Shown: positions 29,410 through 31,918 of the stretch, piece by piece
Numbering within the stretch: position 1 is the stretch's first letter
How the letters are laid out: every line of letters starts with the position of its first letter
From: Thiomargarita sp.
Lineage (GTDB): Bacteria > Pseudomonadota > Gammaproteobacteria > Beggiatoales > Beggiatoaceae
Length of the DNA: 64,000 bases
Direction: 5' to 3'
Assembly: GCA_020718845.1 (NCBI GenBank)
Contig: DYRG01000005.1
Location: forward strand, 1 to 64,000
Program-made: the position numbers and the translations under genes
The notes under the pieces: generated by a model
Seen by the model: only the letters and a program-made list of their open reading frames with translations
Database searches by the model: none
What the model was told of the DNA's origin: nothing

Positions 29410-29444
29410 AAAACCTAGCAAGTTTTTAACATTTGCTAGGTTTT
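29410..29444 (+). terminator. Terminator after the alpha-E gene
   Basis: A perfect 12-bp stem (29410-29421 and 29433-29444) with an 11-nt loop ends in four T. It starts 15 bp after the alpha-E stop. Confidence 0.8.
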
Positions 29445-29451
29445 ATCATTT

Positions 29452-29577
29452 GTAGGGTGCAATGCAATTGCACCAGAAATTTCCGAGAAATGAACCAATA
29501 AAAAACTGCAAGATTTTTAAGACGTTGCCGTTTTTAAATTTTGCATCATTTGTTGGTGTAATTTCATTGCACCTTAC
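29452..29577. mobile_element. MITE-like 126-bp element with 23-bp terminal inverted repeats
   Basis: The terminal segments 29452-29474 and 29555-29577 are inverted copies matching at 20 of 23 positions. Each repeat is itself nearly palindromic around GGTGCAAT...ATTGCACC. The inside is A/T-rich with no open frame. It lies between the alpha-E terminator and an accessory gene, with its right end 3 bp from the stop of that gene. I see no transposase, so it would be non-autonomous. A structured REP-type repeat is the alternative. Confidence 0.5.
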
Positions 29578-29580
29578 GGA

Positions 29581-29970
29581 TTAAAAGCGATAGCCACGCC
29601 CCACAAAATAATGCCAGTCAGCGATCGCTTGTTGCATGGCTTCATCCACGTCGTCTAGCGGCATCAGCTGTGACAGCGGTACAACCACCTTGTTTCCTTC
29701 CAGCGCGACTTTCACCAATATAGTATTAGCCGCATGGCACTTTTCGAGCGAAGCCAGATTAACGATTTTCACCTCATCGCCTTCTTTCAATGGCGAATTC
29801 TGACTTACCGCGTGACAGCGAGTTTTAAGCGGAGACTCACAAGCCTCCATCTCATCCTCAATATACAAGTGCCATCCCTTTGCACGCTCCTTTCTGCTAT
29901 GCGCATCAATGAGGATTTCCTTCTCAATGCGCTCTTCACGTGCTTCATCTCTTTCCACTTCATTTGCCAT
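29581..29970 (-). CDS. CcbP-like calcium-binding protein
   Basis: A 129-residue acidic cytosolic protein. The blocks REERIEKEILIDAHSRKERAKGWH, SPLKEGDEVKIVNLAS, VVPLSQLMPLD and the C-terminus DWHYFVGRGYRF match, from memory, the small calcium-binding protein family described in Anabaena (CcbP), which buffers calcium during heterocyst development. Base composition is clearly more balanced than in flanking genes, pointing to transfer. GGAGA precedes the ATG at 29970. It is divergent from the EF-Tu-like gene across the palindrome at 30021. Confidence 0.75.
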   Translation of the reverse strand: MANEVERDEAREERIEKEILIDAHSRKERAKGWHLYIEDEMEACESPLKTRCHAVSQNSPLKEGDEVKIVNLASLEKCHAANTILVKVALEGNKVVVPLSQLMPLDDVDEAMQQAIADWHYFVGRGYRF

Positions 29971-30020: not shown

Positions 30021-30058
30021 TATAGTATAATACCTAAAAACATAGGTATTATACTATA
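30021..30058. promoter_or_regulatory. 16-bp perfect palindrome containing divergent -10 elements
   Basis: Sixteen bases (30021-30036) are repeated in exact inverse at 30043-30058 with a 6-nt A-rich spacer. Each arm includes TATAAT: on the plus strand at 30026-30031 and on the minus strand at 30053-30048. It lies between two divergent accessory genes, so it could be a shared promoter/operator or a cruciform; no clear -35 is seen. The leaders would be about 70 nt (CcbP side) and about 175 nt (EF-Tu side). Confidence 0.6.
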
Positions 30059-30214
30059 TGATGCCGCGTTCAACTTTAAAAAATTTGTAACCATTTTTAA
30101 GTTGCTGACAGGCTTAAGCTGTAGCTGTTTCTTTCGAAGGTTTAAAGAGCAGTCGATTTTTAAAATACGCGTTCAACTCACTCCACCAACAACACAATAA
30201 TACCGAGGTACACA

Positions 30215-30850
30215 ATGTCTAAAGAAACCCAACGCAATTTCACCATCGGCACGATAGGTGCTTCCAACCACGGCAAAACCACATTGCTAGCCGCAATCTT
30301 AAAGCTGCTATCGGATAAGGAGCAAGCGGATTTCCGTTTATATAGAGACCTTTTTGATAACGACAGTAGTAAGCGTAACGAAATCGACCAACTCCGCGAG
30401 GTCATCGTGGCAGAGTACGAGACCAACAGCTACTACTACACACACATCGACTGTCCTGGAGGTGACGCATACACCGAGAACCTGGTGGCAGCCATATCTA
30501 GGATGGATTGCGCGATTTTGGTGGTATCGGCACCTGATAGCGTGACATCGCAGACCACGGAGCATCTGCGAATTGCTCGTGAGGCTGGCATACGAGCCAT
30601 CGTCGTCTGCATGAACCAGATTGACAGGGGCGACGGTTACGAGTTGCTTGACTGCACCAAAGAAGACATACGCCAATTGCTGAGTGAGCATGGCTTCGAC
30701 GGCGACAGCATACCCATTATCGGTTGTTCAGCCCAAAGCGCACTGGACGACGGGAATCCAGACCGTGAGTGGGGATGGCGCATTGTAAATCTGCTTGATG
30801 CCATCGACGATAATTGCAGCAAATTAACCTTCAAGGGCGGGCTGCTATAG
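30215..30850 (+). CDS. Stand-alone EF-Tu-like G domain with degenerate catalytic and switch motifs
   Basis: A 211-residue protein aligning with only domain 1 of EF-Tu. The P-loop is GASNHGKT (15-22; GHVDHGKT in EF-Tu). DCPGGDAY at 79-86 replaces DCPGHADY, so the GTPase-activating His is Gly. The base-recognition motif is NQID (134-137) instead of NKCD. The switch I RGITIN segment is missing. No tRNA-binding domains 2-3 follow, so it cannot be a normal elongation factor. G+C is higher than in the neighbours. It may be a nucleotide-binding decoy, a regulator or a decaying paralogue. A GAGG site precedes the ATG. Confidence 0.8.
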   Translation: MSKETQRNFTIGTIGASNHGKTTLLAAILKLLSDKEQADFRLYRDLFDNDSSKRNEIDQLREVIVAEYETNSYYYTHIDCPGGDAYTENLVAAISRMDCAILVVSAPDSVTSQTTEHLRIAREAGIRAIVVCMNQIDRGDGYELLDCTKEDIRQLLSEHGFDGDSIPIIGCSAQSALDDGNPDREWGWRIVNLLDAIDDNCSKLTFKGGLL

Positions 30851-30859
30851 CTGGTCAGG

Positions 30860-30881
30860 TGGGCATGTACACTCATGCCCA
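30860..30881 (+). terminator. Hairpin after the EF-Tu-like gene
   Basis: An 8-bp perfect stem (TGGGCATG and its complement) with a 6-nt loop lies 9 bp after the stop at 30850. It lacks a T-tract; the stronger hairpin at 30892-30978 follows. Confidence 0.4.
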
Positions 30882-30891
30882 TAGGTATCAA

Positions 30892-30978
30892 CTTTAAAAA
30901 ATTATACAATACAAAAGAAAAAGCCCACAAACTCAAATTTGCGGGCTTTACTTTTAAATAAAATCAAAGCGTTATTTA
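30892..30978. repeat. Direct repeat copy A containing a terminator hairpin
   Basis: About 85 bp that recur, with few differences, at 31842-31925; a 30-bp core (from AAAAGAAAAAGCCCAC onwards) is identical. The core forms a hairpin (AAGCCCACAAA with TTTGCGGGCTT) and could stop transcription from either side. It separates the EF-Tu-like gene from the antitoxin gene. Confidence 0.8.
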
Positions 30979-30992
30979 ACATTTTAAAACAA

Positions 30993-31217
30993 TCAATGAT
31001 GTAATGCTAAACGTTCGGCTAACCAGATTTTAATAATGGATTGTTTTGAAACACCAATACGCTTAGCTTCTTTATCCAAAGATTCAACCATCCAGATTGG
31101 AAAATCTATCTTTATCGAGGTTTGTTCTTGCATAACTCGTTTTGCTTGGGAAAGATCAAGCATTTCTAATACGCTTTCTCCCTCATCGAATTGTTGATTA
31201 AACTCACTTGCTTTCAT
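30993..31217 (-). CDS. BrnA/CopG-like antitoxin, apparently solitary
   Basis: A 74-residue protein with a C-terminal ribbon-helix-helix-like region (TSIKIDFPIWMVESLDKEAKRIGVSKQSIIKIWLAERL), the DNA-binding part of BrnA/CopG-type antitoxins. The N-terminal half would contact a toxin. Directly upstream on the same strand is a decayed BrnT-like reading frame (31232-31400), so the antitoxin survives without a working cognate toxin. It could still repress its own promoter or counter a BrnT encoded elsewhere. Confidence 0.75.
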   Translation of the reverse strand: MKASEFNQQFDEGESVLEMLDLSQAKRVMQEQTSIKIDFPIWMVESLDKEAKRIGVSKQSIIKIWLAERLALHH

Positions 31218-31231
31218 ATAAAATCACTTTT

Positions 31232-31400
31232 TTAAATTTTTCCAATCCCGATATAACGTTTTTCATCTTCGAGCATTTTAGCTGGAATTTCAAGCAAGTC
31301 TGGATCATTCCACAACTGTTGCGCACTAATAAAATCAATTCCATGTTTTATTAGATTGCTTTGGCTTTTTCGTTACGTTTTAATTTCAATCAACAACATC
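31232..31400 (-). pseudogene. Remnant of a BrnT-like toxin gene
   Basis: Translating the minus strand gives two pieces that together read as a BrnT N-terminus: LKLKRNEKAKA, then in another frame NLIKHGIDFISAQQLWNDPD and LLEIPAKMLEDEKRYIGIGKI, ending at the TAA at 31232-31234. A frameshift lies between them and stops interrupt the first piece. The C-terminal strand and helix carrying the conserved Arg residues of BrnT RNase are missing. Its position just upstream of a BrnA-like antitoxin fits the brnT-brnA order. Confidence 0.65.
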
Positions 31401-31441: not shown

Positions 31442-31777
31442 TTACTTTGATAAATTCTGGTTACAAAAGATGTCTAAGAATTGTCTATCTTTGTAACCAG
31501 TAAGCTGGTGTTTCACTGCGCCGTCAACAATCAAGAAGATAGTAGGAACGCTCGTAACACCGTATTCTAAAGCGAGTTCTTCATCTCGATCGACATCCAC
31601 ATTACCAAAAACTATTTGGTCTGCGTATTTATCCGCCAAAGAATTAATGATAGGTGTCAGTTGTTTGCACGGTTCAGCCCATGTCGCATAAAAGTGAAGC
31701 ATAACAGGCAAAGGGGAATTTAGAACGTCACTCGTAAAATTTGCCTTTGTAAAACTTCTTACATTACCACTTGTCAT
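31442..31777 (-). CDS. Thioredoxin-fold protein with an AxxC active site
   Basis: A 111-residue single-domain thioredoxin. The fold markers are present (VMLHFYATWAEPCKQLTPII, the VDVDRDEELALEYGV segment and the cis-Pro in TSVPTIFLI). The redox motif is W33-A-E-P-C37: the first, attacking Cys of CGPC is Ala while the resolving Cys stays. It therefore cannot do normal dithiol exchange, but could bind partners or act by a one-Cys mechanism. There is no signal peptide. It lies within the accessory island between the two direct repeats. Confidence 0.9.
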   Translation of the reverse strand: MTSGNVRSFTKANFTSDVLNSPLPVMLHFYATWAEPCKQLTPIINSLADKYADQIVFGNVDVDRDEELALEYGVTSVPTIFLIVDGAVKHQLTGYKDRQFLDIFCNQNLSK

Positions 31778-31841: not shown

Positions 31842-31918
31842 CTTTAAAAAATTAGTATAAAAGAAAAAGCCCACAAACTCAAATTTGCAGGCTTTTTCTT
31901 TTGAATAAAATCAAAGCA

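What the first reader, a model, noticed from the sequence alone, without database searches (positions are those of the whole stretch)
30215..30850. Lone EF-Tu-like G domain with altered catalytic motifs
Only domain 1 of EF-Tu is present. The catalytic His of DCPGH is Gly (position 83), the switch I RGITIN segment is gone, the P-loop Asp is Asn and NKCD is NQID. The fold motifs are kept, so the gene does not look like random decay. EF-Tu is a frequent target or co-factor of toxins and phage-exclusion proteases, so a decoy or sensor is conceivable. Base composition and flanking repeats suggest it was acquired.
Basis: partly seen in the sequence, partly recalled or inferred. Interest (0 to 1): 0.7.

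Follow-up and report, generated by a model that had tools for sequence, protein, structure and literature searches.

The report
Acquired lone EF-Tu-derived pseudoGTPase
A bacterial genome carries, beside its two normal EF-Tu genes, one acquired gene for only the GTP-binding third of EF-Tu, rebuilt so that it probably binds nucleotide but can neither switch nor take part in translation; what it does is unknown and no close relative was found.

Summary
Window 30215-30850 (+) is an intact 211-aa gene, with a plausible ribosome-binding site, for EF-Tu domain 1 only. Pfam GTP_EFTU matches at 7e-34; an AlphaFold model (pLDDT 88) aligns to EF-Tu with Z 28.6. All 12 nucleotide-pocket residues checked are kept. 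Four motifs are altered: catalytic His84 to Gly, the switch-I RGITI stretch with Thr61 replaced, NKCD to NQID, P-loop Asp to Asn. The genome also has two full-length EF-Tu genes at 38-40% identity, so this is not a broken host gene. Simulated neutral decay to this divergence gave 3 of 3000 stop-free copies, none keeping the pocket. The gene is the strongest codon-usage outlier of 57, the divergent CcbP gene beside it the second, and an exact 16-bp repeat, unique in the genome, flanks it: acquisition is well supported. No close relative appeared in the genome samples (1900 searched), a motif scan of 84,980 species genomes, plasmids, phages or viral contigs; the nearest analogue is a lone domain with a ricin lectin in Streptomyces eurocidicus. 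I read it as a nucleotide-binding, non-catalytic pseudoGTPase acting as a binding module. The decoy idea is possible but has no positive evidence.

The parts
30215..30850 (+). Lone EF-Tu-type G domain, 211 aa: P-loop GASNHGKTT (res 15-23), DCPGG (79-83), NQID (134-137), SAQ (172-174)
   Evidence: AlphaFold model pLDDT 87.9, pTM 0.86; VIA-align to EF-Tu 2c78 Z 28.6, rmsd 2.6 over 202 residues
30205..30208 (+). GAGG, plausible Shine-Dalgarno, 6 nt before the ATG
   Evidence: read from sequence
29581..29970 (-). Divergent neighbour, 129 aa, CcbP-type calcium-binding protein; the second-worst codon outlier of the window
   Evidence: Pfam PF11535 E 5.3e-23; codon score -0.150 against 0.0 to 0.36 for the other genes
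30021..30058 (.). Perfect inverted repeat, 16-nt arms, 6-nt loop, in the 244-nt gap between the two divergent genes; a -10-like TATAAT overlaps it. Possible shared operator/promoter region (inferred)
30070..30085 (+). Left copy of exact 16-bp direct repeat TCAACTTTAAAAAATT
30888..30903 (+). Right copy of the same 16-bp repeat
30859..30882 (+). Stem-loop just after the stop codon (GUGGGCAUG/CAUGCCCAU), no T run
   Evidence: fold z -3.1
30910..30949 (.). Terminator-like hairpin in a 40-nt element repeated at 31856-31895 (95% identical)

Best explanation
An acquired, long-diverged derivative of EF-Tu domain 1 that has become a stand-alone pseudoGTPase. Shown: intact gene, EF-Tu domain-1 match with a confident predicted fold, kept nucleotide pocket, loss of the catalytic His and of the switch-I Thr that contacts the gamma-phosphate, foreign codon usage, host EF-Tus present separately. 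Inferred: it binds guanine nucleotide, probably weakened by NKxD to NQxD; it does not hydrolyse GTP in the EF-Tu way and has no switch-I-coupled conformational change; without domains 2 and 3 it cannot carry aminoacyl-tRNA; so it works as a nucleotide-stabilised binding or scaffold module for a partner not yet known (class ii pseudoGTPase, like the Rnd proteins). A link with the divergent calcium-binding CcbP protein (same foreign island, shared intergenic palindrome) is a weaker inference.
For: Fold and family. Separate intact EF-Tu genes at 40 and 38% identity in the same genome. All 12 pocket residues kept; His84, Thr61 and Lys136 changed. Neutral decay rejected: 3 of 3000 simulated copies stop-free, 0 keep all 12 pocket residues, mean 4.9 kept. 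Foreign origin. EF-Tu His84 is essential for GTP hydrolysis while ternary-complex formation is unhindered in H84A (PMC6594751); Thr61 is the only direct switch-I contact to GTP (PMC6950810). PseudoGTPase classes: PMC5593906. A second lone EF-Tu G domain lacking His84 and switch I exists in S. eurocidicus.
Against: No relative close enough for dN/dS, so selection is argued only from the simulation and motif retention; a gene long under selection could be decaying now. Nucleotide binding and activity are untested. Some GTPases hydrolyse without a catalytic His, so 'dead' is inferred. The protein scores just above the generic small GTP-binding domain cut-off (TIGR00231, 43.2 against 42.5), which allows a working GTPase of another mechanism. 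No partner, operon or conserved neighbour is known.
Confidence: 0.5

Rival explanations
1. EF-Tu decoy, sensor or antidote in conflict with phages or toxins: the domain imitates EF-Tu domain 1 so that an EF-Tu-directed toxin, protease or phage factor is titrated or detected.
For: Acquired gene beside a CcbP gene of a family also found on plasmids, near toxin-antitoxin, integrase, nuclease and DUF499 genes; EF-Tu is cleaved in phage exclusion in E. coli (PMC6822514); an orphan CopG-antitoxin-like ORF lies next door; EF-Tu is fused to a CHAT protease domain in one Streptomyces.
Against: A decoy should keep the surface it imitates; here half of the near-invariant EF-Tu columns are changed, including switch I, helix B, H19, L121, L148 and E152. 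No significant PADLOC match; no recurrence in defence islands, no close viral relative.
Confidence: 0.13
2. Translation regulator: competes with EF-Tu for EF-Ts, ribosomal L7/L12 or the ribosome.
For: Helix C keeps QTxEH (Gln114, Glu117, His118) and helix D keeps parts of its pattern.
Against: Only 3 of 6 EF-Ts contacts (positions recalled from memory) are identical; H84, L121, L148 and E152 are changed; helix B keeps 2 of 13 residues. No domain 2/3 for tRNA.
Confidence: 0.12
3. Active small GTPase with a new catalytic arrangement, e.g. potassium-dependent through the P-loop Asn, regulating an unknown process.
For: P-loop Asn in GxxNxGKT contacts potassium in MnmE and FeoB (PMC3466195); Mg-site Thr22 and Asp79 kept; passes the generic small_GTP domain cut-off.
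Against: The switch-I Thr is lost and the switch-I part of the model has low confidence (pLDDT 64-69); no second Asn at the K-loop position five residues after the P-loop Lys (residue 26 is Ala; read from the sequence).
Confidence: 0.13
4. Recent or ongoing pseudogene of an acquired EF-Tu fragment, without function.
For: Singleton; catalytic motifs altered; repeats and a partial toxin-antitoxin locus around it show a fluid region.
Against: Stop-free 211-codon frame at 40% identity, all pocket residues kept, in-frame codon-position GC pattern (0.54/0.40/0.60), ribosome-binding site.
Confidence: 0.12

Closest known systems
EF-Tu (TIGR00485), domain 1
   Same: Fold, order of motifs, pocket residues; 38-46% identity to full-length EF-Tus
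   Different: No domains 2 and 3; His84, Thr61, Lys136 and Asp21 changed; score 160 against a family cut-off of 522
S. eurocidicus lone EF-Tu G domain with C-terminal ricin-B lectin segment (L038:7962-8702)
   Same: Single EF-Tu G domain, switch I and His84 gone, P-loop Asp replaced
   Different: NKCD kept, switch I really deleted, lectin segment fused. The tree joins the two at 87/54, both on very long branches (about 5 changes per site), so common origin is not shown
Class ii pseudoGTPases (Rnd proteins; PMC5593906)
   Same: G domain with some G motifs lost while the pocket looks kept
   Different: Rnd proteins are Ras superfamily and eukaryotic; this one is derived from EF-Tu; nucleotide binding untested
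Prokaryotic Ras-superfamily small GTPases (PMC4316618)
   Same: Single-domain P-loop GTPase fold in a bacterium
   Different: Sequence is EF-Tu-derived by a wide margin (PF00009 7e-34; MMR_HSR1 6e-6)

Membership tests
EF-Tu (TIGR00485) | Curated score cut-off 522.4 | tested here: not met
   160.3 bits
EF-Tu (TIGR00485) | Domains 2 and 3 present | tested here: not met
   Only GTP_EFTU found; no domain 2/3 coding remnant downstream
EF-Tu (TIGR00485) | Catalytic His84 and switch-I Thr61 | tested here: not met
   Gly83; Ile at the Thr61 column of the alignment, in a region whose alignment is uncertain, but no RGIT-like motif anywhere in it
EF-Tu (TIGR00485) | Domain-1 fold | tested here: met
   Predicted model, Z 28.6 to 2c78
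[quoted passage not shown]
   G2/switch I lost, G4 altered, catalytic His lost
PseudoGTPase, class ii | Binds nucleotide without hydrolysis | not testable with these tools
   Kept pocket residues make binding plausible only
Prokaryotic Ras-superfamily small GTPase | Best relationship to the Ras superfamily rather than to translation factors | tested here: not met
   Best matches are EF-Tu throughout
Known anti-phage defence protein | Significant match to a PADLOC model | tested here: inconclusive
   Only AriA and LeoA at E about 0.001
Shared family with the S. eurocidicus lone domain | One clade with support | tested here: inconclusive
   87/54 with long branches

The most novel reading that the evidence does not exclude
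A mobile two-gene module in which an EF-Tu-derived, non-catalytic G domain and a calcium-binding CcbP protein act together, as a sensor or decoy in conflict with phages or toxins; the lone or dead EF-Tu G domains seen elsewhere would be further cases of EF-Tu being recruited for signalling or defence.
Probability: 0.1. Interest if true: 0.75.

Novelty: new variant of a known kind. Interest (0 to 1): 0.42.

Why it matters
EF-Tu is among the most conserved proteins and its G domain is normally tied to domains 2 and 3 and to the ribosome. A horizontally acquired, stand-alone and apparently non-catalytic EF-Tu G domain shows that it can be recruited for something else. Together with the other odd EF-Tus met here (lone domain with ricin lectin segment, EF-Tu fused to CHAT, full-length copies without the catalytic His) it makes bacterial EF-Tu-derived pseudoGTPases a testable idea.

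Tried and rejected
Truncated or decayed host tuf: rejected. Degenerated phage EF-Tu: no viral relative closer than ordinary EF-Tu and no grouping in the tree. Possible second lone domain in a genome of another phylum (L114, 202-aa frame): it runs to the contig end and looks like an ordinary EF-Tu cut by the assembly. Relatives by search: 57 relatives, 369 class, 398 phylum, 377 and 396 genomes of two other phyla: only full-length EF-Tus among matches above the cut-offs (apart from fragments at contig ends); the samples overlap in part, and only candidates from a loose first look were scored. The scan of 84,980 species genomes used two narrow peptide patterns taken from an alignment with artificially varied rows that served only to steer the choice of patterns; relatives lacking both motifs would be missed. 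CcbP relatives in the family have no GTPase beside them in the roughly 3.3-kb loci held. The first Foldseek job failed; the VIA-align look gave the answer. Literature searches in the open library found no report of a lone EF-Tu G domain of this kind.

Full report
What is there. The ORF at 30215-30850 (+) is intact, 211 aa, starts with ATG and has GAGG 6 nt upstream. Pfam finds only the EF-Tu GTP-binding domain (7.1e-34, residues 9-200); NCBIfam's EF-Tu models match residues 5-201 at 160-166 bits, far below their cut-offs of 449-522. Host EF-Tu compared with the whole window gives one meaningful match, ending at 30808, so no domain 2 or 3 remnant follows.

Not a broken tuf. The genome (2.98 Mb, 123 contigs, 99.97% complete) has two ordinary full-length EF-Tu genes (394 aa each) at 40 and 38% identity to this protein. 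Mutating the host tuf G domain at random until 40% amino-acid identity is left gave 6.3 stops on average, 3 stop-free copies in 3000, a mean of 4.9 of 12 pocket residues kept and none with all 12; the real gene is stop-free and keeps all 12. The model is simple (uniform substitutions, no indels) but the gap is large.

Motifs. In E. coli numbering: Asp21 to Asn, His84 to Gly, Lys136 to Gln, the RGITINTSH stretch replaced without much change in length, Thr61 gone. Kept: Gly18, His22, Gly23, Lys24, Thr25, Asp80, Pro82, Gly83, Asn135, Asp138, Ser173, Ala174. Of 72 columns that are at least 90% one letter among 19 EF-Tu rows of the alignment, 37 are kept and 35 changed. His84 is essential for GTP hydrolysis but not for ternary complex formation (PMC6594751); Thr61 is the only direct switch-I contact to GTP (PMC6950810); monovalent-ion binding in translational GTPases uses the P-loop Asp and a switch-I Gly, both changed here (PMC4342817). 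Asn in the P-loop occurs in translational GTPases of the same alignment that look otherwise normal and contacts potassium in MnmE and FeoB (PMC3466195), so this change alone says little. From memory: Lys136 mutants of EF-Tu bind nucleotide more weakly.

Structure. An AlphaFold model from an alignment of 24 sequences has mean pLDDT 87.9 and pTM 0.86; the switch-I region (residues 41-60) is the weak part (64-69). VIA-align puts EF-Tu structures first, Z 28.6, rmsd 2.6 over 202 residues for 2c78.

Acquisition. GC 51% and GC3 0.60 are the highest of 57 window genes and the codon score is the lowest (-0.336); the CcbP gene is second lowest (-0.150), all others are at or above zero. An exact 16-bp direct repeat, with no other exact copy in the genome, brackets the GTPase gene (30070-30085, 30888-30903); 1 of 500 shuffles had a repeat that long. 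Between the two divergent genes lies a perfect palindrome with 16-nt arms (30021-30058). CcbP-type genes occur on plasmids, e.g. in Polaromonas near an integrase, a VapC/antitoxin pair and IS21, and in Leptolyngbya near a PD-(D/E)XK nuclease and a DUF499 gene. Among relatives, CcbP is rare (4 of 95 genomes including this one). A foreign origin of both genes is likely; that they came together or work together is only suggested, since the 16-bp repeats bracket the GTPase alone.

Relatives. Searches of samples from the family, class, phylum and two other phyla found only full-length EF-Tus above the cut-offs. Plasmid and phage collections gave EF-Tu and other translation factors at about 29-44% identity. 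A motif scan of 84,980 species genomes gave one comparable protein: S. eurocidicus, 246 aa, one EF-Tu G domain without switch I and His84, followed by a ricin-B lectin segment. The same species has a full-length EF-Tu relative that has also lost His84 (L054). In a tree both lone domains sit on branches of about 5 changes per site and join at 87/54, which does not show common descent. A search of 199 Streptomyces genomes found no second copy of the S. eurocidicus lone domain among the listed matches.

How it probably works. Shown: a foreign, intact, EF-Tu-derived G domain with a kept pocket and lost catalytic and switch residues. Inferred: nucleotide binding without EF-Tu-type hydrolysis or switching, i.e. 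a class ii pseudoGTPase as defined in PMC5593906, acting by binding a partner. The decoy/sensor reading is not excluded but its expected mark, preservation of EF-Tu's outward surfaces, is missing. The partner is unknown.

Verdict. A real and unusual gene, well above chance; a new variant of a known kind (pseudoGTPase) from an unusual source (EF-Tu). Interest is moderate because it is a singleton so far and the function is open.

Noticed in passing
L037:7956-11153 (Streptomyces coeruleorubidus): A full-length EF-Tu (P-loop Asn, His84 kept) fused to a long C-terminal part ending in a CHAT protease domain (1065 aa).
   Followed up: partly
L038:7962-8702 and L054:1501-2652 (S. eurocidicus): Two odd EF-Tu relatives in one species: a lone G domain with a ricin-B lectin segment, and a full-length copy without His84 and with a shortened switch I.
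   Followed up: partly
L081, L083, L084, L086, L088, L090, L092, L094 (viral contigs, up to 532 kb): One clade of viral-contig EF-Tus (100/100) lacks the RGI of RGITI in switch I (KTVTI, KVVTI and the like) but keeps His84. From memory, the Gly59-Ile60 bond there is the cut site of phage-exclusion proteases, so resistance of phage-borne EF-Tu is a testable idea.
   Followed up: partly
L095:2836-4566 (viral contig): 577-aa EF-Tu with P-loop Gly, altered switch I, NMCD, His84 kept, and an acidic C-terminal extension without a convincing Pfam match.
   Followed up: partly
window 30993-31217 (-) and 31204-31344 (-): Orphan CopG-antitoxin-like ORF (just below Pfam's cut-off) with no intact toxin partner found beside it.
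   Followed up: partly
window 30910-30949 and 31856-31895: 40-nt terminator-like element repeated directly (95%), bracketing the CopG ORF and a thioredoxin-like gene.
   Followed up: no
window 29443-29586: REP-like inverted repeat with GGTGCAATGCAATTGCACC next to the island.
   Followed up: no
window 31442-31777 (-): Thioredoxin-like protein whose active-site motif reads WAEPC, with the first Cys replaced, and the third-lowest codon score of the window.
   Followed up: no
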